Assembly: GCF_007833355.1 (NCBI RefSeq)
Contig: NZ_CP020914.1
Location: 2,280,047-2,344,046, forward strand
Direction: 5' to 3'
Origin: Denitratisoma sp. DHT3
GTDB taxonomy: Bacteria; Pseudomonadota; Gammaproteobacteria; Burkholderiales; Rhodocyclaceae
DNA length: 64,000 nt
Shown here: positions 2,979-13,202 of the stretch, piece by piece
Layout of the letters: each line of letters starts with the position of its first letter
How positions within the stretch are numbered: the first letter of the stretch is position 1
The notes under the pieces: generated by a model
What the model was told of the DNA's origin: nothing
The model's database searches: none
What the model saw: only the letters and a program-made list of their open reading frames with translations
Position numbers and translations under genes: made by a program

Positions 2979-3956
2979 TTAGAGCTGTTTTGCGACGCCG
3001 ACCGCAATTGTCTCCGGCCTGACCCCAATGCCGTAAAAATATCCGCTTGATCTGACATCACGTGGCAACCCATGGCGACCGCTACTAACTCGCCATACGG
3101 ACGAATCAGCGTGAAACAGTTGGGCTAATAACGCTAGGACCGAAAACATTTTCGGTCCTAGCGGAAGAATCACAACGTTGTGCTCCTCTTCGAGGCCGCG
3201 TATCGCTGAATCCAAGATCGCGAGAGTACCGACAGGGTCTTCGACCGCGTATTCAATCACGTCTCGCTCGCCCAATTCCGCCAGAAGGCTTTCGTTGGCT
3301 TGGCGTAGATCTGGTTCATAATCCTTAATCAGCGACACTGGCATGAACGCAACAACCTTGGATGCCTGTAGATACTCAGTCGCCCCCATCACCTTGCCCG
3401 GTTCATAGCCCAGGCCCGCGACGAGGGCAATTGGCCTTCCCGGATCCCTAAACCACCCGGCAAATCGACTGTGTACTGGACCGACGATCTCGTTCTGAAC
3501 GAAGCCGCCTTCCGGAGGTTGAAATTCCGCCAGCGCGTACCAGATGTCGAGCGTAATCTTTCCTTGCTGTGTTAGTGGAATAGCAGCGGCCAGTATTGAA
3601 GCGATACGAAATCGATTCAAACAAGACACATCGCAGGCGACCCGAGACGGTTCCAAGGATGAGCCCCGCTGTGATGCCAACTCTTCAAGCTCTTTCGCGA
3701 TAATCTGGGGAAAGTCTCCATCCGAAATGTCGTTGAGAAGTCGGATGCCATTGGACGAATACCAACTCGTATTAGCTGCGTACGCGGCTTCCCGGTTGTG
3801 GTCAAAGCCGATAGCGACGATACGGTCCTTAAAGGAAAGTAGTTCCGTTGAAACGGCGATAGCTCTTGACTCATAACCAAGTGCAACAAGAACCAAGTCG
3901 TAACCAACTTCGCGCTCTTGCTCTAGGGCAATTCTTTCAAACCGTAAGTCATTCAT
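2979..3956 (-). CDS. unrecognised protein, fourth gene of the methylase-phosphoesterase-ATPase operon
   Basis: This is a 325-residue soluble protein that I cannot assign to a family. An alternation of short hydrophobic strands and helices suggests a Rossmann-like fold: LVLVALGYESR near the N-terminus, ACDVSCLNR in the first third, and VVILPLGPK near residue 270. The last of these, followed by a hydrophobic helix, recalls the sensor face of CARF-type proteins, but that is only a guess. Start: ATG 3956 overlaps the end of the ATPase gene by 8 bp and has an AAGGGG ribosome site; a longer frame from 4028 would run back into the ATPase gene. It is the last gene of its operon, and downstream is the left direct repeat. 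A role as sensor or effector partner of the ATPase is inferred only from position. Confidence 0.75.
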   Translation of the reverse strand: MNDLRFERIALEQEREVGYDLVLVALGYESRAIAVSTELLSFKDRIVAIGFDHNREAAYAANTSWYSSNGIRLLNDISDGDFPQIIAKELEELASQRGSSLEPSRVACDVSCLNRFRIASILAAAIPLTQQGKITLDIWYALAEFQPPEGGFVQNEIVGPVHSRFAGWFRDPGRPIALVAGLGYEPGKVMGATEYLQASKVVAFMPVSLIKDYEPDLRQANESLLAELGERDVIEYAVEDPVGTLAILDSAIRGLEEEHNVVILPLGPKMFSVLALLAQLFHADSSVWRVSSGRHGLPRDVRSSGYFYGIGVRPETIAVGVAKQL

Positions 3957-5835
3957 CAAATAACCCCTTTTGCGGATCATCTTCGGACTTGTTTGATGAC
4001 TGTGTTGGTTTGGGCCGCTCTCTTTCAAGTATCCGAGGGCTCTTCTTTACTAGCGTCGCCAAGGATCTGGACTTGCTCGCGGAACGCAGTGGAAGTAGCG
4101 CCAGAGGAGCAAAGAGGTGGGTCAATCGGAGCCGAACTCCCGCGACCTGAGAAAAAACGGAACGCCCTTCTAACCCTCCAATTGGGATAAAAGCTCCTGA
4201 GTAAAGTCCATCGGCAATTGCGTCTCTCACCGCCTCATCGCAATCTTCGGGAACCTCGAAGCTCATCACTGGATCCATTGTGAAGACACCCTCCAGGACG
4301 CTACGGCGGAAGGAGCCTGTGAGTTCGTCTACGATGTAACGAAGGCCACCCTTCCTACTGTTATCCGGCGCCGCCACCTTACTCGGTATCGTCGTAATGT
4401 AGTCTTGGAACTTTTGCGATGCTCCCTGAATAACTCGAAACTGCTTGTCGACGCTGATATCCCGGCCAGAACTACCCCGCGACCGTTCAATCAGCAGTTG
4501 TCTGGCAATACCGGTAAACCATCTCGGGTTCGCTTCTGAAATAAAGCAAACGGCCTCCCAGCCGCTATAAATCTTGGCCGTAGACTTCTTACCTTTCTTA
4601 AGTACGCTTTTTTCACCCCTACGTGAAGGGCCTCGGTCGATCAGAAGATTTCTAAAGCCAACGAGAGGCGCTGCTTTACGAACTACCGCGTCCATCAATT
4701 CTGGAGGTACCTTCTCCAGATCATTTGCGTTCACACCCTTCCTGGAAAGGACTTCCTGAAAGGATGGATCCTTGTTCGCGAGTTCGCTAAATGCGCGCTG
4801 CCATGCCCCTGTACGCCGATAGGTTCCTCGTACATCTGGCGCATGAAATACTGAATGACCCAAAACAGCTGTGGGTTGTACGATGCTCGTCTTATCGGCA
4901 GCCAAAGCTAGGCGACCCCATAACGCTTCGCAGAAGCCTTGCGCATCCTTCGGGTCGGCGTACAGAGATATCTCTTCGAAGTCGTTGCCTGCTGATGGCC
5001 CGAGAACGCTGTGGAAGACATCGGCTGCCGATGCAGATGGGCTAATCGCAAGTTTGAATACCAACCGTTGATCGGTCGATCGAAGGCACGAAAAGAGCAT
5101 CCGCTGAACACTATCGGGAGCAATTTCAAGTTCGTCAAAAAGTAGCCCCCAACGTCCTTGGTATTGGCCGGTCATAGCGTTGAAGGCCTCAATACCCTGG
5201 CTCGCACATGGAACAAGGGCAGTCTGGGCAGATGAAAGTAAGTGCGCTAGCTGGTCAGGACTATTGGTTGCGACTTCGTGAAGCCTTGCCATCCGGTCGA
5301 CGAGCGATTGCTTGATACCCAACAGCGAATAGATCAAGGGAGAAAGGTTCCAGCTGTTGGCGAGAGCCCTACAAAGCTCCGATTCTCGTTCCCGCGACAC
5401 GTCAAAATGGAGGAAGCCGTTATCCTGCTGCGGTCGATCATGGGTCAACTGAAGAAACGTATCAAGCAGCGCCCTCTGGAAATGGGTAACGAAAATAGCA
5501 TCTGTAAAGCGGAGGGCTATCGGCTGCTCAATTGCTTCGGCAATACAAGTAATCTGTTGCTTCCATGCCTCGTCCGCCGGAATAAAGACACCAATGAATC
5601 CAACTGATGCCCGGGTCTGATCTGCACTCGGATGATTCCAGCACGCCAACGCCTTCGGCTGAAGCATCTTTAATAGGTGCGTCTTACCGCTCCCTCGCGG
5701 CCCCACAACCAGCGCATGCTGCAAGGTCGCTAGCTGGTGAAAATTTAGATTTGGAACAAAATGCGAAGCGATTTTCTCCGCATCAAGGTGTCGCGCGTTA
5801 AATGCCGAGAAGAAAACCTTTGATGACTTTATCAT
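3949..5835 (-). CDS. AAA ATPase, ORC-CDC6-like, defence-associated
   Basis: This 628-residue P-loop ATPase has Walker A GPRGSGKT at residues 45-52 and Walker B LLFDELE at 231-237. The N-terminal FNAR segment (12-15) followed by the P-loop recalls the prokaryotic ORC-CDC6/STAND-like ATPases found in conflict systems. The C-terminal third (from about residue 400) is basic and charged, with no recognised domain, and may bind nucleic acid or a partner. Its ATG overlaps the phosphoesterase stop by 4 bp (ATGA), and its own stop overlaps the next gene by 8 bp, so the subunits are probably made in a coupled way. Likely an ATP-driven switch or remodeller for the neighbouring phosphoesterase. ATPase activity is firm; the role is inferred. 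Confidence 0.85.
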   Translation of the reverse strand: MIKSSKVFFSAFNARHLDAEKIASHFVPNLNFHQLATLQHALVVGPRGSGKTHLLKMLQPKALACWNHPSADQTRASVGFIGVFIPADEAWKQQITCIAEAIEQPIALRFTDAIFVTHFQRALLDTFLQLTHDRPQQDNGFLHFDVSRERESELCRALANSWNLSPLIYSLLGIKQSLVDRMARLHEVATNSPDQLAHLLSSAQTALVPCASQGIEAFNAMTGQYQGRWGLLFDELEIAPDSVQRMLFSCLRSTDQRLVFKLAISPSASAADVFHSVLGPSAGNDFEEISLYADPKDAQGFCEALWGRLALAADKTSIVQPTAVLGHSVFHAPDVRGTYRRTGAWQRAFSELANKDPSFQEVLSRKGVNANDLEKVPPELMDAVVRKAAPLVGFRNLLIDRGPSRRGEKSVLKKGKKSTAKIYSGWEAVCFISEANPRWFTGIARQLLIERSRGSSGRDISVDKQFRVIQGASQKFQDYITTIPSKVAAPDNSRKGGLRYIVDELTGSFRRSVLEGVFTMDPVMSFEVPEDCDEAVRDAIADGLYSGAFIPIGGLEGRSVFSQVAGVRLRLTHLFAPLALLPLRSASKSRSLATLVKKSPRILERERPKPTQSSNKSEDDPQKGLFDE

Positions 5836-7025
5836 GTTGCCCTCGGGGCAATTTGGCTGGGAAGCCCCGTACGATCGTAGTTGACTGCAATTCCCCGCAA
5901 TTCCAACTCGTCTTCCAACTGTTCCAAATGCTCTGGCGTCAAGTAGTTAAGCGAGGGAAGCGTCCCGAGTGCTTCTGACCATGTAATGTACGCAGTGCCG
6001 ACGAGCTTTGAAAGCTCATCGGCTAAGCAACCCACTTGACCCTTAAATCCGAAGCCACAAATGGTTGGCATACCCAAATTGCTACGCCCTGCTTGGCTCC
6101 ATTCGGTTGTCTCGGTCCACGACCAAGTCTTAACAGTGCCGACAATCGACGAATGATCAGACTGATTCGACTTCTTTAGCTCAATGAGGTGAAACTGATT
6201 CGGAATACCGGTTAGCCTTGCTCCAAGGCTACTGGAACCAAAAATAATGGGCGCACACGACGTCGAGGCTTGACCGTACACCAGACGTGGATGGTGGCGA
6301 TGCCCGTGAATGACCAGCCAGGACTTTCTTGTCGCGCGTTCTAGCTTTTCCAACAGTTCCGCGCCTTTGTGCACATACTGGTAGTCTGTTTTGCCTGCGA
6401 GGCTCGTCATAGGCATGAGATGGTGGTGACAGACAAGAACGAATGTCTGCTTGTCCTTCCACTTAGCCAACTCGCATAGAATGGCATCAATCGTACGCTG
6501 ACTTACTCTTCCGTGTTCGATTTCTTCTTCGCGGCCACCATGGTATGCGCTCGTATTTAGCACCAATGTGCAGCAGTCAGAAGCTAGATCGACGAAGACA
6601 AAGTTCTGTGCCCAGTACTGATTGTTGATGGCTGGATCGTCAAAAGGGAACCCTGGCGTTTGACACAAAAGAGCACCCTTCGGATCGGGGTCGTCGTCTT
6701 CGCTACGGTCCTTCAAATATCTCGAATTCAAATCGTGATTGCCGCAGGTCGACACCAACTGCCGCGAGCCGAGAGCCGCGTTCAGTTCTTGGAGCCTTGA
6801 CCACGCAGAACTGAAGCCTTGCAGGTCCGCTTGATTGCATATATCGCCGGCGCAGACCAGTATGTCGGCGGTAACACGCTCGCGCCTTACATACTCAATT
6901 AGATTGACGAGTGGGTTTCTACTCTCTAACGCCGCCGTGCCGAATTGCAAAGATGAATTGCTCGAATTCTTTGCATCTACGAAAGCATGCAAGTCGCTTA
7001 TCACCGCAAAGCTAAGCTCAGCCAT
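5832..7025 (-). CDS. calcineurin-like metallophosphoesterase
   Basis: This 397-residue protein carries the full metal-ligand set of the calcineurin-like superfamily in its first 245 residues: SDLH (10-13), GD (60-61), GNHD (95-98), a triple His (200-202) and GHRH (241-244). Such enzymes are two-metal phosphodiesterases or nucleases (MRE11/SbcD type) or phosphatases; the sequence does not say which substrate. Residues 260-397 form an extra C-terminal region I do not recognise. The start lies 10 bp after the methylase stop behind AGGAT, and the stop overlaps the ATPase start. Pairing a phosphoesterase with a P-loop ATPase resembles SbcCD-like logic, although this ATPase lacks the long coiled coil of SbcC. 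It is the probable effector of the operon. Confidence 0.88.
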   Translation of the reverse strand: MAELSFAVISDLHAFVDAKNSSNSSLQFGTAALESRNPLVNLIEYVRRERVTADILVCAGDICNQADLQGFSSAWSRLQELNAALGSRQLVSTCGNHDLNSRYLKDRSEDDDPDPKGALLCQTPGFPFDDPAINNQYWAQNFVFVDLASDCCTLVLNTSAYHGGREEEIEHGRVSQRTIDAILCELAKWKDKQTFVLVCHHHLMPMTSLAGKTDYQYVHKGAELLEKLERATRKSWLVIHGHRHHPRLVYGQASTSCAPIIFGSSSLGARLTGIPNQFHLIELKKSNQSDHSSIVGTVKTWSWTETTEWSQAGRSNLGMPTICGFGFKGQVGCLADELSKLVGTAYITWSEALGTLPSLNYLTPEHLEQLEDELELRGIAVNYDRTGLPSQIAPRAT

Positions 7026-7035
7026 ATTTTTGATC

Positions 7036-7872
7036 CTAGCTTGTCGTACGATAGTTTGTCATTATCATTTCATTTATGTCGGTCCGGAACTTCACTCCGC
7101 CGGCAACCGTTCGACGGACCGATTCGTACATACGCGACCACCCTTCAAGCTCCTCTATTATCTCTTTGTCATGAACATAGGATAGCATCACGTTCACGTT
7201 TCGCTCCGTCAGTTGTTTCGCTGCCGCAACGAGACGACGCTTGTCCTCATCATCAAAACGAGCTGCGTAGCCGTATTCGCCTCGATAACGCGTAGTCGTG
7301 GGATAGGGCGGATCCAGGTACACGAAGTCACCTGGCTGAACATCAGCTAGCGCCGCCTGAAAATCCCCTGAGATAAGAGTGGCCCCGTGAAGAAGGGACG
7401 AGGCCGCACGCAACTCCTGGAGTGTCGGGATTGCATATATTCTCGACCCCAACGGAACGTTGAACCTGCCCTTCCTATTCGTCCGATATACCCCGTTGAA
7501 ACACCCCTTCATGAGGTAGATGAGCTGCGCTGCGCGCTGCTCCAACGTCAGTGTCGTGCGATCCAGCTCACGCAAGATGTAATAGGCATCGGACGATACT
7601 GGTATCGAAGCCAGGTAACGATGAACCTCAGATGGGTTATCTCGGACGGCCGTATAGACGTCAATAACCTCTGGATTTATGTCACCTAGCGTCGCCCTAT
7701 TCGGACGCATACGAAAGAAAAGGCAAGCCGATCCTGCAAACGGTTCGATATATGAACGGAAAGTCTTCGGTGCAGACCTTTCCAGTATAGACACCAACCG
7801 CGCCTTGCTTCCCGACCAACGCAGGAAGGGCGCTGCTGCAATCTGCACATTGATTTCGGATGGCTCCAACAT
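7036..7872 (-). CDS. D12-class (Dam-like) DNA adenine N6-methyltransferase
   Basis: This 278-residue protein has the usual length and motif order of Dam-family methylases: WSGSK near residues 19-23, the SAM-binding EPFAGSA (43-49), GDINPE, and the catalytic DPPY at 187-190. It would methylate adenine at N6 in an unknown recognition sequence. It is the first gene of the operon, with an AGAAAGAG ribosome site before ATG 7872. No restriction endonuclease of a known family accompanies it. Self-marking by this enzyme, with the phosphoesterase and ATPase acting on unmarked DNA, is the natural hypothesis. An orphan regulatory methylase is the alternative. Confidence 0.9.
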   Translation of the reverse strand: MLEPSEINVQIAAAPFLRWSGSKARLVSILERSAPKTFRSYIEPFAGSACLFFRMRPNRATLGDINPEVIDVYTAVRDNPSEVHRYLASIPVSSDAYYILRELDRTTLTLEQRAAQLIYLMKGCFNGVYRTNRKGRFNVPLGSRIYAIPTLQELRAASSLLHGATLISGDFQAALADVQPGDFVYLDPPYPTTTRYRGEYGYAARFDDEDKRRLVAAAKQLTERNVNVMLSYVHDKEIIEELEGWSRMYESVRRTVAGGVKFRTDINEMIMTNYRTTS

Positions 7873-8221: not shown

Positions 8222-8764
8222 CTAAACCCTTATGCTAATTCGACCTTGAGTACTGGACCCTAGTATGCACAAGTAATGCCCCTCCTGCTTTCCCTTTGCG
8301 GCTTGGTGCCTTCGAACTAGTTCCTCGCAGGCCCAATAAACATCCCAAGGTACAGCATCCAGACGTTCGGCCAAGATCCGATGATCAGTGGATTCGGTAG
8401 GAAGCGAGGCGAGTACAGAAGCGATCCAACCTTCCGATATCCGTTCTACGCGCGCAGCGCCATATGCGCCGCACCATAGGATTTCGTCGTTCCAAACAAT
8501 AAAGTGTGCTCGACAGCCATCCTGCTTCCAGACAGAGGGATATAACGTGATCTTGCCCTTGCGTTCGTACTTGCGCCAGGCTGGACCGCTCCGGCCATCG
8601 AGATTGACGCTAATCGTGTCACCACAGCCATCCGGACAGCGAATCAAGACGGAACGTGGAACGCCTCGTTCGACAATCACGCAATCGCCAGGATGCTTCA
8701 GCAATTCGACACCGTTCGAATAGCGTTGCACAACGCCGCAAAACCGAAGCTTATTCACTTTCAT
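8222..8764 (-). CDS. DUF6527 family protein of a ubiquitin-like conjugation operon
   Basis: This 180-residue protein has the DUF6527 pattern in its first 100 residues: CPDGCG, then a Trp-rich stretch, LYPSVW, a Cys before HF, and ILWCG. The cysteines look like zinc ligands. The family is repeatedly encoded with bacterial Ubl, E2-like and JAB-E1 genes; its biochemical role is not known to me. The start overlaps the end of the JAB-E1 gene by 14 bp, so it belongs to the same transcript and is its last gene. The tail from about residue 115 is helical and charged. Family assignment rests on the motif and the neighbours together. Confidence 0.8.
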   Translation of the reverse strand: MKVNKLRFCGVVQRYSNGVELLKHPGDCVIVERGVPRSVLIRCPDGCGDTISVNLDGRSGPAWRKYERKGKITLYPSVWKQDGCRAHFIVWNDEILWCGAYGAARVERISEGWIASVLASLPTESTDHRILAERLDAVPWDVYWACEELVRRHQAAKGKQEGHYLCILGSSTQGRISIRV

Positions 8765-10094
8765 GGTCTATCTCGTGGAGTGGGTCACCATAGTCGCCAT
8801 TTCCAACAGCCTCGGCGCCGCAAAAAGGACAATTCGGCTTGGACGACGATTGAGTTGGATTCATACGCGAATCGGCACCGTTGTAGTACACGTAGCGCCC
8901 TCTGTGGGGAATACCTGTAACTGCGGATAGCGCCATCGTTACTGCGAGCGACGCCGCAGTGGACGTCAGAGATATCACTGCCGGCTGCTTTACGGCGTTT
9001 GCATTCGAGAAATAAGGGTCCGCCTGACGTTGCTCAGGGGTCATGAGTTCATGCCGTATTCTCTTGGCGTCAAGCCGATCCATACACCATAAACACGGCA
9101 GGCCCGGCGCCAACATTGTCGCCTGAGCGCCATAAAAAAGGGGGACGCCTTCATTTTTTTGGATTACCACGCCCATATCGATAACCGGAATCATGTACTT
9201 GTAGGCAATCCGGTTAAGTTGATCGCGACTTGCGTGAGAGTCCGTGCAACAGAAGATGAGGTCGGCATCTACCAGTCTCCGTCCAACACCTCTCTTTGTC
9301 ACGTCCGCGCGGATGGGAACTATGGACGGACTGGCTCGCGCCTCTCGGATCACGCGCTCAGCCACTTCAATTTTCGGGCGATTAATATCTCCCTCAGTGG
9401 CGCCGTAGATGCGGTTTAGATTGGTCCTATCAACAACATCCCAGTCCACCAAGATGTACTGATCAATGCCGAGGCGGGACAACTGATAGACAATGGCCGA
9501 ACCAGTGCCGCCAAATCCGACAATGGCTACCCTCAGACTGTGCAACCGCCGCTGCCCTTCCTCACCAAAGGCGAGAATTTGGCGGTTGTGCTGGTCCTCT
9601 AGAAGCACAGCCTCTCCGGTATTGCAGGCGAAATGCAGTTCTGCTCCTACCTCCACCACCCGAATTGGTTCGCCGCTGGTCATTATCCTCGCGTCGAAAC
9701 CTGTGTTTCCAACAAGTAACGATGCATGGGGAACTCCGGGGCTGCGATAGTCCATGTACGGGCCCAGTTGACGCTCGGCGTCATCGTCTATGGAAGAAAA
9801 TTCCGGCCTATCCTGCATTGGATGGCTATGGCAGTAAATCAGGGACCAACCTCGGTCTTTGGCGCGACGTTCTAACGGGATCGCAAAATCCGGGGAGAGA
9901 CGAACCCTTGTTGGCGTCCGGCAATCGTAGTCACCTTCTGCTGGCAGGTGAATCTCTTTGACTAGTAGCCGGAATCCGTCGGCCCGAGCGGCGGGTGTCG
10001 CCAATAGAATCGCGGCACTCTCCCTCGACTTGTCATCAAGAAGTGCTTGCTTTAGCCGTTGAAGTTCGGGAGCCTTAAAAACCAAATCAATCAT
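8751..10094 (-). CDS. fused JAB/MPN deubiquitinase and E1-like ThiF adenylyltransferase
   Basis: This 447-residue protein has two enzymes in one chain. Residues about 1-150 are a JAB (JAMM) metalloprotease with H89-S-H91-P and S101-x-x-D104. Residues about 180-400 are a ThiF/E1 domain with the nucleotide loop GFGGTG (193-198). CLWC (334-337) and a C-terminal CPFC make a probable zinc knuckle, and C282/C283 are candidate thioester cysteines. It should trim and activate the small ubiquitin-like protein two genes upstream. ATG 10094 overlaps the E2 stop by 4 bp; an earlier in-frame ATG at 10187 would lie inside the E2 gene. Bil-type operons usually encode the JAB and E1 enzymes separately, so the fusion is noteworthy. 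Confidence 0.88.
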   Translation of the reverse strand: MIDLVFKAPELQRLKQALLDDKSRESAAILLATPAARADGFRLLVKEIHLPAEGDYDCRTPTRVRLSPDFAIPLERRAKDRGWSLIYCHSHPMQDRPEFSSIDDDAERQLGPYMDYRSPGVPHASLLVGNTGFDARIMTSGEPIRVVEVGAELHFACNTGEAVLLEDQHNRQILAFGEEGQRRLHSLRVAIVGFGGTGSAIVYQLSRLGIDQYILVDWDVVDRTNLNRIYGATEGDINRPKIEVAERVIREARASPSIVPIRADVTKRGVGRRLVDADLIFCCTDSHASRDQLNRIAYKYMIPVIDMGVVIQKNEGVPLFYGAQATMLAPGLPCLWCMDRLDAKRIRHELMTPEQRQADPYFSNANAVKQPAVISLTSTAASLAVTMALSAVTGIPHRGRYVYYNGADSRMNPTQSSSKPNCPFCGAEAVGNGDYGDPLHEIDHESE

Positions 10095-10480
10095 TCCAGG
10101 CGCTCCAATCGGTCGCGGATCGTGCTCATGTACGAACACAAGTCGCAGGTCGCAGGATTCCAATTGTTCACATGCCAGGAGAACCAACGGGATCCCGGCG
10201 GCGCCATAAGGTGTGGATTGGAAGTCTGGCTGTTCTTCGGCTCACCGCCAGCGACAAATCGCAGATCTTCCGACCAAAAGCAGTCGGGGGCAGCGGACGG
10301 ATAACCATCCGGAACCGTGAACCAGATTGCAGTCGCAGCTTTATTCCAGCCAGCTGGTAGATCTACTGCCGGAATATAGATGCTGTGGGTCCGGTGTCCT
10401 TGGTCTTGCCGAATCACCACATCGGAGAAACGTTCTTTCAGCCGAAAAAAATGCCGTTCCAGCGTACTTCCGGGTTCCAT
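10091..10480 (-). CDS. prokaryotic E2-like (UBC family E) conjugating protein
   Basis: This 129-residue protein lies between the Ubl and E1 genes. The Pro-rich middle (VPDGYPSAAPDCFW, near 56-69) matches the YP-x-x-P core of E2 folds, and the W-F-S-W-H and NWNP motifs near 99-109 match the prokaryotic E2 family E. Candidate catalytic cysteines are C67, C112 and C115; which one carries the thioester cannot be decided here. The start at 10480 is one base after the Ubl stop, with GGAGT as ribosome site. Predicted to receive the activated Ubl from the JAB-E1 protein and pass it to a target. Confidence 0.8.
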   Translation of the reverse strand: MEPGSTLERHFFRLKERFSDVVIRQDQGHRTHSIYIPAVDLPAGWNKAATAIWFTVPDGYPSAAPDCFWSEDLRFVAGGEPKNSQTSNPHLMAPPGSRWFSWHVNNWNPATCDLCSYMSTIRDRLERLE

Positions 10481-10481
10481 T

Positions 10482-10772
10482 TCAGACTCCAAAATCGGCA
10501 TTCGGACGACTATGGAAGTGCAGCGGTCCACCATTGCCATGTCCGTGGGAAACATCGATCGGGTCGTTGTCGCCAATCGTGCGATCGGCCTCGTTGCCGT
10601 TACCCTCAAGCACGAGGGTATGGTTGGGGTCGAATGTCTTTCCAGCCGCGCGAATTGCATCCTTGATTTGGGCCCCCGTCAGGACCGCCTGAGTCACGTC
10701 GATCTTCTCACCTACGAAAAAGAAGAACTGATTCTCGTGCGGCGTGCCTTCCTTAACTTTTCCAGTTTCCAT
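10482..10772 (-). CDS. ubiquitin-like protein (single multiubiquitin-type domain)
   Basis: This is a 96-residue beta-grasp-like protein of the multiubiquitin family. A short variable leader is followed by FFFFVGEKIDV, a helix TGAQIKDAIRAAG, TLVLEG and a final strand LHFHSRP ending ADFGV. The penultimate residue is Gly95, so removal of one Val by the JAB enzyme would expose a C-terminal glycine; an internal GG at 81-82 is probably within the fold. The start ATG 10772 has GGAGAT seven bases upstream; an in-frame ATG at 10850 lies in the promoter region and is less likely. It is the first gene of the conjugation operon and divergent from the WYL regulator. Confidence 0.82.
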   Translation of the reverse strand: METGKVKEGTPHENQFFFFVGEKIDVTQAVLTGAQIKDAIRAAGKTFDPNHTLVLEGNGNEADRTIGDNDPIDVSHGHGNGGPLHFHSRPNADFGV

Positions 10773-10905
10773 CGTTACATCTCCATATAGAAATATTGCT
10801 GGCGAGAAAATACATATAAATACTATACGTACCATGCCAGCTGGCCGCATGATAGTATGGGTATAATTTCTATGTCAACATAATTTATATACGTATCGGA
10901 GGCTT
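10773..10905. promoter_or_regulatory. divergent promoter and operator region of the Ubl operon and WYL regulator
   Basis: This AT-rich 133-bp gap separates divergent genes. A near-palindrome is centred on GCCAGCTGGC (10836-10845): CATG flanks it on both sides (10833-10836 and 10848-10851), and ATACTA (10820-10825) faces TAGTAT (10853-10858). TATAAT at 10862-10867 can serve as the -10 for the WYL gene, and TATAGTAT-like sequence on the minus strand for the Ubl operon. CapW/BrxR regulators bind such inverted repeats and hold the divergent defence operon silent, so this is the expected operator. Confidence 0.55.
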
Positions 10906-11784
10906 GTGAAAAAACAAAGTCGGGCATGGAGTGCCGAGGCTAGACTCCAGTTCATCGAGTTCAGGCTTTACTGGGAAGGGCGAATCAATCGAGCGGACCT
11001 AATTAGCCATTTCGGCATATCGGTTCCGCAATCGTCCCTTGACCTGAGAAGCTACCTAGAACTTGCACCAGGCAATGTCGAATACGACAGTCGACGGAAG
11101 GCTTACTTTGCGACAAGTAGTTTCAAACCGGTGCTTACTACACCGAACGCGAGAGACTACCTAGCGCAGCTTGAAATGCTCCAAGCCGAGCAAGACAGCC
11201 CGTTTTCTCATCGTTCGTTTGTTAGCGTTCCGCCAAGCTTTGACATCGCGCCATTCCCCGAACGGGTAGTGGATCCGCAAACCCTCAAACGCGTGCTTCA
11301 TGCCATTCGGGAGCGACGGGCACTGCACATGGAGTACCAGTCGATGAACCGACCGGAGCCCATTTGGCGTTGGATATCGCCTCACGCCATCGGGTCCGAT
11401 GGCTTTCGATGGCATATCAGAGCCTACTGCTACGAAAACAATAAATTCATCGACTTCGTTTTCGGCAGAATATTGGCGATTGGGGAGTCGAAGGACAGTG
11501 AAGTTGACCCCAGCGAAGACTCGGCCTGGAACAATTGGATCGAACTAACGATTGGGCCAAATCCTTCATTGGCTGGCGGGCCACGCAGAGTAATCGAACT
11601 CGACTACGGTATGGTTGGAGGCCTGACGAAGCTCATAGTCCGTGAGGCTCTGTCATCGTATCTGAAAAAACGACTTGGCCTCATTGCCAACATCGCCAGC
11701 TCAGAAGCCGCTCACGAAGATAAACAGGCAGGTCAACAACATATTGTTCTGATCAGGGAGGAACGGGTTAGCGCTAGATCATGA
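10906..11784 (+). CDS. WYL-domain transcriptional regulator, CapW/BrxR type
   Basis: This 292-residue protein starts with a winged helix-turn-helix (about residues 8-75, including RINRADLISHFGIS). A linker strand region follows, then a WYL domain (about 120-205) with MEYQS, an RWISP segment, WHIRAYC and FVFGRI in the expected order, and a C-terminal extension. Such proteins repress defence operons such as CBASS and BREX and release them on infection, probably after sensing a nucleic-acid ligand through the WYL domain. The GTG start has CGGAGG just upstream. It is divergent from the Ubl operon; whether it also controls the methylase operon is unknown. Confidence 0.88.
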   Translation: MKKQSRAWSAEARLQFIEFRLYWEGRINRADLISHFGISVPQSSLDLRSYLELAPGNVEYDSRRKAYFATSSFKPVLTTPNARDYLAQLEMLQAEQDSPFSHRSFVSVPPSFDIAPFPERVVDPQTLKRVLHAIRERRALHMEYQSMNRPEPIWRWISPHAIGSDGFRWHIRAYCYENNKFIDFVFGRILAIGESKDSEVDPSEDSAWNNWIELTIGPNPSLAGGPRRVIELDYGMVGGLTKLIVREALSSYLKKRLGLIANIASSEAAHEDKQAGQQHIVLIREERVSARS

Positions 11785-12100: not shown

Positions 12101-12685
12101 TCAGCTTCTGGCAAAGGCGAGTAAAGGCGCAATGTCGCGCGCGTCGGCGGCTTGCAGTGCGGTGATGTAGTCCTTGCGAGTGTCGTTGGCGTCGACCAAG
12201 CTCTTGCTGCCCCAACTGAATCGAGGCTTGCCCAAGCGCTCAACCAGCAGGTCCGCCATCATCCGGGCATGACGTCCGTTTCCGTTGGGAAACGGATGAA
12301 TGGCGACGAGCCGGTGGTGGAAGCGGACGGCGATCTCGTCGGCCGGGAAGATACCGTGCTCGACCTGATAACGCACATCATCGAGCAACTTTTTCAGATC
12401 AACGCCAATGCAGAGCCAATCGACACCGATGTTCTTGTCGGACTTGCGAAAATCGCCGGCCCACTTCCAGGTTTCGCCGAACATCTGCTGGTGCAGCTGA
12501 CGCAGGAAACCCTCGTTGAGGATTTCCTTGCGCTGCTTGCGCGCCCAGCGCTCACCCTGGACGATGTTGAGCTGCTCCCATTCGTTCAGATCGCCCTGGG
12601 TGGTGATGTGACTGGGGATCAGGCTGGCGAGTTCGTCTGCATCAAGTGGGGTGGCACCAGGTGGATAGGCAAGCTGGACAGTCAT
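12101..12685 (-). CDS. mobile mystery protein B, Fic/DOC family
   Basis: This 194-residue protein contains the Fic active-site loop HPF-x-NGNGRxxR at residues 130-141, with Asn where most Fic enzymes have Asp or Glu. Upstream GETWKWAGDFR (70-80) is typical of the family. Fic proteins transfer AMP or related groups to target proteins. The gene overlaps the HTH gene by 4 bp (ATGA); together they match the mobile mystery protein A/B pairs seen on many mobile elements. It is probably the toxin-like member. The catalytic His, Gly and Arg residues are present, so it is likely active. Confidence 0.88.
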   Translation of the reverse strand: MTVQLAYPPGATPLDADELASLIPSHITTQGDLNEWEQLNIVQGERWARKQRKEILNEGFLRQLHQQMFGETWKWAGDFRKSDKNIGVDWLCIGVDLKKLLDDVRYQVEHGIFPADEIAVRFHHRLVAIHPFPNGNGRHARMMADLLVERLGKPRFSWGSKSLVDANDTRKDYITALQAADARDIAPLLAFARS

Positions 12686-13185
12686 TTGGCCGGCCGCTCC
12701 CTTTCCGACACTTCTTTACCCGCCCCTCGCCATAGGGTGCGGCGCGATCCCTTGAGGAGCTCTTCGGCCAGGACGCGAGTCTGCAACTCGACCGCCTCCC
12801 GGGAGGTCGATTGTGCTTCCAGTGCCATGGTGTGGCTGACAGCGGCCATCTGCTGGCGCGCCAGAGTCATGGCCCGGCTTTTCAGGGTATCGGCGAGGCT
12901 CTGCTTCGGCACCAGGGCGTAGTGCAGTTCGCAGCCCAAGGCTTCGGCGACGCGCCGCAGAGTACCCAGGCTGATGGTGTCATCTGCCTCGGATGTTTCC
13001 AACCGGGTCACCGTGGAGGTGGCGACGCCGAGCCTTGCCGCCAGGTGGGCGGCGGCCATGCCCAGGCTCTCGCGGATGGCCTTGATCCAGCCAGACGGCG
13101 GACGCGACGACAAATCGGCATCTCGCCAGCGGTTCAAGGCAGCATCGAGCTGGCGAAGCTTGAGTTCGGAGAAGTTCAATTTCAT
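12682..13185 (-). CDS. mobile mystery protein A, XRE-type HTH protein
   Basis: This is a 167-residue protein from ATG 13185 (a TTG at 13197 is in frame). The helix-turn-helix covers about residues 30-85: AIRESLGMAAAHLAARLGV, then STVTRLE and TLRRVAEALGCEL. The rest is helical. It is the regulator and probable antitoxin partner of the Fic protein whose gene overlaps its end. A perfect CAAACT-4 nt-AGTTTG repeat just upstream is the likely autoregulatory operator. Confidence 0.85.
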   Translation of the reverse strand: MKLNFSELKLRQLDAALNRWRDADLSSRPPSGWIKAIRESLGMAAAHLAARLGVATSTVTRLETSEADDTISLGTLRRVAEALGCELHYALVPKQSLADTLKSRAMTLARQQMAAVSHTMALEAQSTSREAVELQTRVLAEELLKGSRRTLWRGAGKEVSERERPAK

Positions 13186-13202
13186 AGCATTGCCCAATAA
13201 CG

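What the first reader, a model, noticed from the sequence alone, without database searches (positions are those of the whole stretch)
2979..7872. Four-gene operon: DNA adenine methylase, metallophosphoesterase, AAA ATPase and an unknown protein
Seen: four minus-strand genes, the first two 10 bp apart, the others overlapping by 4 and 8 bp, with intact Dam-like (DPPY), calcineurin-like (SDLH, GD, GNHD, GHRH) and P-loop (GPRGSGKT, LLFDELE) motifs. Known: D12 methylases mark DNA, calcineurin-like enzymes cut phosphodiesters, and ORC-CDC6-like ATPases occur in conflict systems. I know no named defence system with exactly this quartet. Inference: a self/non-self system in which the methylase protects host DNA and the ATPase-gated phosphoesterase attacks unmarked DNA. 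The company (Ubl operon, Fic pair, recombinase) supports a defence role.
Basis: partly seen in the sequence, partly recalled or inferred. Interest (0 to 1): 0.85.

Follow-up and report, generated by a model that had tools for sequence, protein, structure and literature searches.

The report
Four-gene methylase and CARF defence module
Four neighbouring genes - a DNA-marking enzyme, a phosphodiester-cutting enzyme, an ATP-driven motor and a probable sensor of small nucleotide signals - occur together in the same order in bacteria of several phyla, and probably form an uncharacterised antivirus system that joins DNA self-marking to nucleotide signalling.

Summary
In detail: four minus-strand genes at 2979-7872 with the stated spacings and motifs. 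The set is no accident. A genome-collection scan with the ATPase returned 56 loci; phosphoesterase, ATPase and the fourth gene stand in that order wherever the contig allows, and a D12 adenine methylase lies directly upstream in 48 of 57 (window included). The active-site motifs are invariant or nearly so.

The "unknown" protein is a stand-alone tandem-CARF protein (PADLOC CARF6; confident AlphaFold2 model; rows 1-36 of the second structural comparison are CARF or SAVED proteins). The phosphoesterase has a C-terminal winged helix and resembles cyclic-nucleotide phosphodiesterases more than Mre11. One locus without its own methylase lies in a genome whose only D12 hit is the housekeeping Dam, which suggests GATC marking as the shared requirement. 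Csm1-type Cas10 and SMODS CD-NTase were not detected in most of 50 carrier genomes.

I read it as a self-marking defence module whose attack arm is an ATPase, phosphoesterase and CARF-sensor complex. Whether the phosphoesterase cuts DNA or nucleotides is open. No named system matched in PADLOC or NCBIfam; dedicated Pfam models show that others have seen at least two parts. A new variant of known kinds, experimentally untested.

The parts
7036..7872 (-). D12-class (Dam-family) DNA adenine-N6 methyltransferase, 278 aa, DPPY motif; first gene of the operon
   Evidence: PF02086 1.5e-38; TIGR00571 3.7e-56; nearest solved structure DpnIIA methylase 2dpm 3.4e-44; only D12 match in this genome
5832..7025 (-). 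calcineurin-like metallophosphoesterase (residues about 1-310) with C-terminal winged helix (residues 323-375), 397 aa
   Evidence: PF00149 1e-12 and PF24408 2.1e-17; AlphaFold2 pLDDT 92.3; fold nearest Rv0805 and other phosphodiesterases; D11, H13, D61, N96, H97, H200, H242, H244 invariant in 55 of 55
3949..5835 (-). ORC-CDC6-like AAA+ ATPase, 628 aa, Walker A GPRGSGKT and Walker B LLFDELE
   Evidence: PF24389 1.8e-94; K51, T52, D234, E235, R252 invariant in 57 of 57
2979..3956 (-). stand-alone tandem-CARF protein (two Rossmann-like CARF units, residues about 18-150 and 172-300), 325 aa; putative nucleotide sensor

Best explanation
A four-gene, probably anti-phage or anti-plasmid module. Step 1 (enzyme family shown, activity and site inferred): the Dam-family methylase marks host DNA, most likely at GATC or a closely related site. 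Step 2 (inferred): the ORC-CDC6-like ATPase, together with the phosphoesterase and its C-terminal winged helix, assembles on DNA and is licensed by lack of the mark. Step 3 (fold shown, ligand inferred): the tandem-CARF protein binds a small nucleotide made or released during infection and gates the complex. Step 4 (active-site motifs shown, substrate inferred): the dimetal phosphoesterase then hydrolyses phosphodiester bonds, unmarked DNA being the first guess, so the methylase spares the host. It works like a restriction-modification system with a second-messenger safety catch.
For: Phosphoesterase-ATPase-CARF order in the 56 other loci as far as their contigs reach, in at least seven named phyla. 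Motif residues of all four proteins invariant or nearly so. Phosphoesterase, ATPase and CARF co-vary (Spearman 0.72-0.81 of pairwise distances, 51 loci) while the methylase follows less closely (0.43-0.46), as for an exchangeable marking enzyme. The methylase slot is refilled by a divergent D12 enzyme in L014, L019, L022. The triad of L047 lacks a methylase, and its genome's only D12 hit is the housekeeping dam between a damX-like gene and rpe. 49 of 52 locus methylases carry the N[GA][VLIM]xRxNxxxx[FY]N[VT] stretch that the housekeeping Dam also has. All 14 carrier genomes searched (a chosen part of the 56) have a D12 match, against 150 of 398 sampled genomes of the phylum. Tandem-CARF fold. 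Island setting: lower G+C, ubiquitin-like operon, WYL and Fic genes next door; some other copies lie beside restriction or SAVED genes.
Against: No activity was or could be tested. The phosphoesterase fold is nearer to cyclic-nucleotide and small-phosphodiester hydrolases than to DNA nucleases. By Pfam no protein of the triad has a recognised DNA reader beyond the winged helix, and PF24408 itself was not detected in 10 of 50 carrier genomes. No messenger synthase lies in the operon, and in 50 carrier genomes SMODS CD-NTase matches in 10 and Csm1-type Cas10 above cut-off in none, so the CARF ligand has no known source. GATC specificity rests on motif similarity and on one clear case; three loci hold a methylase without that motif. 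Of the 14 genomes with a D12 match, L048's has only a weak partial hit in a 1099-aa frame. No match in IMG/VR or INPHARED and only 5 of 72,556 plasmids, so mobility looks modest.
Confidence: 0.42

Rival explanations
1. Nucleotide-targeting effector: the phosphoesterase hydrolyses a free nucleotide or a cyclic or linear messenger (depleting the pool or making a signal) rather than DNA. Unmethylated foreign DNA is the trigger through the ATPase, and the CARF protein senses the nucleotide product or signal and amplifies or stops the response.
Against: The C-terminal winged helix (PF24408, above cut-off in 39 of 50 carrier genomes) suggests contact with DNA; a shared dimetal fold does not tell the substrate.
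Confidence: 0.35
2. Off-switch reading: the phosphoesterase is the ring-nuclease-like or phosphodiesterase brake for the messenger sensed by the CARF protein, and the ATPase (with partner DNA) is the effector.
For: CARF gene in one operon with a phosphodiesterase of cyclic-nucleotide type; CARF signalling is known to need messenger removal (starts of abstracts listed).
Against: No messenger synthase in the operon and few detected in the carrier genomes; Pfam shows no nuclease or membrane domain in the ATPase.
Confidence: 0.1
3. Not defence: a Dam-linked DNA maintenance, replication-timing or plasmid and island stability module.
For: ORC-CDC6 ATPases and Dam both have replication roles elsewhere (recalled); some copies lie on plasmids.
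Against: Found by its marker domain in 1 of 398 sampled genomes of the phylum; ATPases 574 of 628 identical in two families of Alphaproteobacteria (L019, L022); some defence-gene neighbours; CARF sensor.
Confidence: 0.08

Closest known systems
Type II restriction-modification with a Dam/DpnII-class methylase
   Same: D12 adenine methylase of DpnIIA type as the presumed self-mark; methylase exchangeable; a host with another Dam seems able to do without the operon's own
   Different: No restriction-endonuclease family; in its place an ORC-CDC6 ATPase, a dimetal phosphoesterase with winged helix, and a CARF protein, conserved as a trio
CARF effectors of type III CRISPR (Can1, Csm6, Csa3, Cam1) and SAVED effectors of CBASS (Cap4, Cap5)
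   Same: Sensor fold: best structural rows are Can1, Csa3, Csm6, Cam1, then Cap5 and Cap4
   Different: No fused effector; the sensor is a separate gene in an operon with a methylase; no Cas10 or CD-NTase in the operon, and Csm1 or SMODS detected in few carrier genomes (the Cas10 palm2 test was unspecific)
ORC-CDC6-ATPase defence systems (SspC of the Ssp phosphorothioate system, BrxC/BrxD of BREX; PMC10853773 and PMC12839542, passages seen)
   Different: Dam-type methylase instead of phosphorothioation or BREX enzymes; adds phosphoesterase and CARF; PADLOC shows no Ssp or BREX signature protein in the operon apart from a weak BrxC match
Calcineurin-CE immune effectors (Nicastro et al. 2023, recalled, not held)
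   Same: Calcineurin-like phosphoesterase as presumed immune effector; the Pfam models for this ATPase and winged helix look like the same batch (PF24390 is PRTase-CE; the link is my inference)
   Different: Could not be checked: I do not know whether that paper already draws this gene set

Membership tests
CARF superfamily (CARF6 group) | Sequence match to CARF profiles | tested here: met
   PADLOC CARF6 1.4e-67; 38 of 38 aligned homologues match PDLC01915. Pfam gave only Csa3_N at 0.072, below cut-off
CARF superfamily (CARF6 group) | Rossmann-like CARF fold, here twice in one chain | tested here: met
CARF superfamily (CARF6 group) | Binds cyclic or linear oligonucleotide | not testable with these tools
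   E29, R31, D109, Y140, K269 invariant in 57 of 57 (which numbers them 24 higher); no ligand data
Type II restriction-modification system | Methylase gene | tested here: met
   PF02086, TIGR00571
Type II restriction-modification system | Adjacent type II restriction endonuclease | tested here: not met
   No endonuclease family above a cut-off in the other three proteins by Pfam, PADLOC or NCBIfam
Type III CRISPR accessory set | Cas10 in the genome | tested here: not met
   Own genome: Csm1 and Cas10 palm2 models without match. Carriers: Csm1 above cut-off in 0 of 50, 7 of 50 with a weak match; palm2 matches 17 of 50 but is unspecific; Cmr2 not tested with its own model
CBASS | CD-NTase in the operon | tested here: not met
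   None of the four genes; a separate CD-NTase/AAA/SAVED operon lies elsewhere in this genome; SMODS in 10 of 50 carriers
Calcineurin-like phosphoesterases | Dimetal motifs DxH, GD, GNH, H, GHxH | tested here: met
   PF00149 1e-12; invariant residues
Mre11/SbcD nuclease subfamily | Nearest fold and family model is Mre11/SbcD | tested here: inconclusive
ORC-CDC6-like ATPase family PF24389 | Match over full length with Walker A and B | tested here: met
   1.8e-94 over residues 8-591; motifs invariant
BREX / Dnd / Ssp systems | Their signature proteins (PglZ, PglX, DndC, SspB ...) in the operon | tested here: not met
   PADLOC gives only weak partial matches for the ATPase (mad8 0.00022, BrxC 0.0066) and no such signature for the others
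Calcineurin-CE system of Nicastro et al. 2023 | Gene set drawn in that paper | not testable with these tools
   Paper not held

The most novel reading that the evidence does not exclude
A restriction-modification system with a second-messenger lock: a tandem-CARF sensor gates an ATPase and phosphoesterase attack arm that spares Dam-marked DNA. The messenger comes from neither Cas10 nor a CD-NTase but from the module itself or from infection debris, so a new source of CARF ligand exists. Hosts with a housekeeping Dam can run the triad without its own methylase.
Probability: 0.28. Interest if true: 0.88.

Novelty: new variant of a known kind. Interest (0 to 1): 0.66.

Why it matters
Restriction-modification and nucleotide-messenger immunity are usually treated as separate strategies. 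A conserved operon in several phyla that pairs a self-marking methylase with a CARF sensor would link them. In most of the 50 carrier genomes examined the known synthases of CARF and SAVED ligands were not detected, so it raises a testable question: what do CRISPR-independent CARF proteins sense? The dam-plus/dam-minus contrast in E. coli K-12 makes the self-mark hypothesis cheap to test.

Tried and rejected
Considered and dropped: (1) 'Unknown fourth protein': rejected, it is a CARF protein. (2) Fourth protein as a type III CRISPR accessory: Csm1 above cut-off in 0 of 50 carriers and no match in the own genome. (3) Mre11-Rad50-like pair: the ATPase is ORC-CDC6-like and the phosphoesterase fold is nearer to Rv0805. 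(4) Methylase lost in L014, L019 and L022, where my first similarity search found none: the slot holds a divergent D12 enzyme.

Led nowhere: sequence search of solved structures with the CARF and ATPase profiles and the phosphoesterase (no informative match); N-half against C-half profile alignment of the CARF protein gave only a short match around the LGYE loop, so the duplication rests on the model; clustering of flanking genes (573 ORFs) gave 13 clusters in 3 to 6 loci each and no constant fifth component; the Cas10 palm2 model is unspecific (it rings in E. coli; 17 of 50 carriers, 10 above cut-off; 34 of 46 matches begin at model position 50 or later, which I take to be GGDEF proteins, untested), so Cmr2-type Cas10 is not excluded in those 17; viral and phage collections gave no match. 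Literature: ten searches listed no paper whose title or abstract start names the quartet; the two papers most likely to mention it (Makarova 2020 CARF census, Nicastro 2023) are not held, so a published mention is not excluded.

Rows dropped before counts: one search compared 51 loci (window included); L005, L011, L013, L047 and L048 lack one of the four proteins in the held DNA and L046 was dropped because its Dam is cut by the contig end. Where the methylase is not adjacent the best Dam hit of the locus was used, and the divergent methylases of L014, L019 and L022 were included, which lowers the methylase correlations. Searches used 50 of the 56 loci (left out L005, L011, L037, L039, L046, L049). 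One search used 14 of 56, chosen because the methylase was missing, moved, cut off or divergent, or for the host. One search left out L005. In one search the three divergent methylases were entered by hand.
Full report
OBSERVATION. One search recomputed the four ORFs: methylase 7036-7872, phosphoesterase 5832-7025, ATPase 3949-5835, fourth protein 2979-3956, all on the minus strand with ATG starts and no internal stops; gap 10 bp, overlaps 4 and 8 bp. The quoted motifs are present. (ORF listing extends the fourth frame to 349 aa from a TTG; the database protein P0001 is 325 aa.) The window lies at G000:C1:2280047-2344046 of a 3.66 Mb single-contig genome.

WHAT THE PROTEINS ARE. Pfam: methylase PF02086 1.5e-38; phosphoesterase PF00149 1e-12 plus a C-terminal PF24408 'wHTH-Calcineurin_assc' 2.1e-17; ATPase PF24389 'ORC-CDC6-like' 1.8e-94; fourth protein only Csa3_N at 0.072, below cut-off. 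NCBIfam: TIGR00571 Dam family above cut-off for the methylase; for the phosphoesterase only matches below cut-off, the best an 'anti-phage phosphoesterase' (2.6e-16). PADLOC: the fourth protein is CARF6 at 1.4e-67, and 38 of 38 aligned homologues match that model. The nearest solved structure of the methylase by sequence is DpnIIA.

CONSERVATION OF THE SET. One scan of the genome collection with the ATPase alignment gave 73 pattern matches and 56 confirmed loci; the pattern filter limits its reach. With the window that makes 57. CARF homologue directly downstream of the ATPase: 56 of 57 by rule, and the exception L005 is an ATPase ORF in two pieces with the CARF gene after the second. Phosphoesterase directly upstream: 54 of 57 by rule; L005 and L048 are cut by the contig end and L020 is an over-extended ATPase ORF call. 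D12 methylase directly upstream on the same strand: 48 of 57, three of which (L014, L019, L022) hold a divergent longer D12 enzyme recognised by Pfam and entered by hand. The other nine: L005, L011, L048 cut by the contig end; L043 and L046 convergent, next to the CARF gene; L050 3 kb upstream in a pair with a restriction-enzyme homologue; L057 2.3 kb downstream beside a DpdB/DndB-like gene; L013 and L047 none in the flank. An overlap of 4 bp is the commonest junction of phosphoesterase and ATPase (33 of 57).

CONSTRAINT. Phosphoesterase D11, H13, D61, N96, H97, H200, H242, H244 in 55 of 55; ATPase G45, K51, T52, D234, E235, R252 in 57 of 57; CARF E29, R31, D109, Y140, K269 (325-aa numbering) in 57 of 57, E185 in 56; methylase D187, P188, P189, Y190, R130 in 52 of 52. 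Pairwise distances correlate among phosphoesterase, ATPase and CARF (Spearman 0.81, 0.74, 0.72) and less with the methylase (0.43-0.46) over 51 loci. These correlations contain shared ancestry, and the methylase set includes the three divergent and a few non-adjacent enzymes, so only the contrast is informative.

THE SELF-MARK. 49 of 52 locus methylases share the N[GA][VLIM]xRxNxxxx[FY]N[VT] stretch, which the housekeeping Dam of Pseudoalteromonas also has; I recall this region as part of the GATC reader of Dam. L014, L019 and L022 lack it. L047, Pseudoalteromonas sp. P1-25, has the triad without a methylase in the flank; its genome's single D12 hit lies between rpe and a damX-like gene (AAA plus SPOR domains), that is the housekeeping dam. 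A Pseudoalteromonas donghaensis plasmid also has the triad without an adjacent Dam (its chromosome was not searched). L013's genome has a D12 enzyme paired with a DUF6996/6997/7226 protein of the kind that PADLOC calls REase_II in L050. All 14 genomes searched have a D12 match (L048's only a weak partial one in a 1099-aa frame) against 150 of 398 sampled genomes of the window's phylum. The 14 were chosen, belong to several phyla, and nine of them carry the enzyme in the locus itself, so the contrast is suggestive only.

RARITY AND SPREAD. PF24408 occurs in 1 of 398 sampled genomes of the phylum, the own one, and in 40 of 50 carrier genomes (39 above cut-off), once in each; it was not detected in the other 10, although nine of those have the phosphoesterase gene in the locus. 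Five of the 40 positions were checked and all five lie inside the phosphoesterase gene. The domain thus looks specific to this module. The ATPase tree holds Pseudomonadota, Bacteroidota, Acidobacteriota, Verrucomicrobiota, Actinomycetota, Planctomycetota, Gemmatimonadota and a SAR324 bacterium; its label Cyanobacteriota for L009 is, I think, a homonym error for Rhodococcus. L019 (Sphingomonadaceae) and L022 (Phyllobacteriaceae) ATPases share 574 of 628 residues, which suggests transfer. Five of 72,556 plasmids match; no INPHARED phage record and no IMG/VR contig does.

MESSENGER SOURCE. The operon encodes no recognised cyclase. Of 50 carrier genomes, SMODS CD-NTase matches in 10 (9 above cut-off) and Csm1-type Cas10 above cut-off in none (7 with weak matches). 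The palm2 model matches 17 but also E. coli and is unspecific. The own genome has no Cas10 match by two models and one CD-NTase in an operon with an AAA ATPase and a SAVED protein at about 1.40 Mb. Limits: PF18144 may not cover every CD-NTase, Cmr2-type Cas10 was not tested by its own model, completeness of these genomes is not told and some carriers are MAGs.

SETTING. The first 14 kb of the window have 51-60% G+C against 57-68% from 14 to 20 kb. Left of the window housekeeping genes (cobQ-like, lipA-like by my reading) give way to an 868-aa protein with a tyrosine-recombinase-like C-terminus (my reading; no Pfam match). Right of the quartet follow a DUF6527, JAB-E1, E2 and ubiquitin-like operon, a WYL protein and a Fic/HTH pair. 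Other copies lie beside a type IV restriction enzyme (L086), a SAVED-CHAT-like protein (L087) and a DpdB-like protein (L057). I made no statistical test of defence-gene enrichment, and most flanks were not annotated.

WHAT IS KNOWN. PADLOC 2.0 and NCBIfam 20 gave no system or above-cut-off equivalog for the trio. Dedicated Pfam models exist; PF24390, next in number to PF24389, is PRTase-CE, which I recall from Nicastro et al. 2023 on nucleotide-targeting effectors, so that group has probably seen at least the ATPase and the winged helix. That paper and the CARF census of Makarova et al. 2020 are not held. Of papers held I saw passages of PMC12839542, PMC10853773, PMC7159879, PMC9503650 and PMC4012209; none of those passages describes the quartet.

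VERDICT. That the four genes are one functional unit is close to certain. That it is a defence system is likely (about 0.8, judgement). That the methylase provides the self-mark is likely (about 0.7). Whether the phosphoesterase cuts DNA (0.42 for the whole model as stated) or nucleotides (0.35) is open. Classed as a new variant of known kinds.

Noticed in passing
window 8222-10850 (-): Ubiquitin-like operon: DUF6527 protein, JAB-E1 (ThiF) fusion, Prok-E2, and a multiubiquitin-like protein (below cut-off), reading toward the quartet; separate system by its families.
   Followed up: partly
window 10906-11784 (+): WYL-domain protein divergent from the ubiquitin-like operon.
   Followed up: no
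window 12101-13197 (-): HTH protein and Fic protein pair; the Fic protein has an HPFPNGNGRH motif.
   Followed up: no
L060 1876-5867 (own genome, about 1.400-1.404 Mb): CBASS-like operon: CD-NTase (SMODS, barely over cut-off), AAA ATPase, and a 504-aa protein with C-terminal SAVED.
   Followed up: partly
L086 2886-4730: 614-aa protein without Pfam or PADLOC match directly upstream of the Dam-less triad on a Pseudoalteromonas donghaensis plasmid; its C-terminus looks like a PDDEXK nuclease (my reading).
   Followed up: partly
L019 and L022: ATPases sharing 574 of 628 residues in two families of Alphaproteobacteria, with the divergent D12 methylase in both: probable transfer.
   Followed up: partly
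L050 2662-4819 and L063 1363-3601: D12 methylase paired with a DUF6996/DUF6997/DUF7226 protein; PADLOC calls the L050 partner REase_II.
   Followed up: no
L087 9472-12944: SAVED-CHAT-like protein beside a second annotated metallophosphoesterase next to a quartet on a Methylobacterium plasmid.
   Followed up: no
L058 9416-12022 (left of the window): 868-aa protein with a tyrosine-recombinase-like C-terminus (my reading) at the edge of the island; no Pfam match at 0.01.
   Followed up: no
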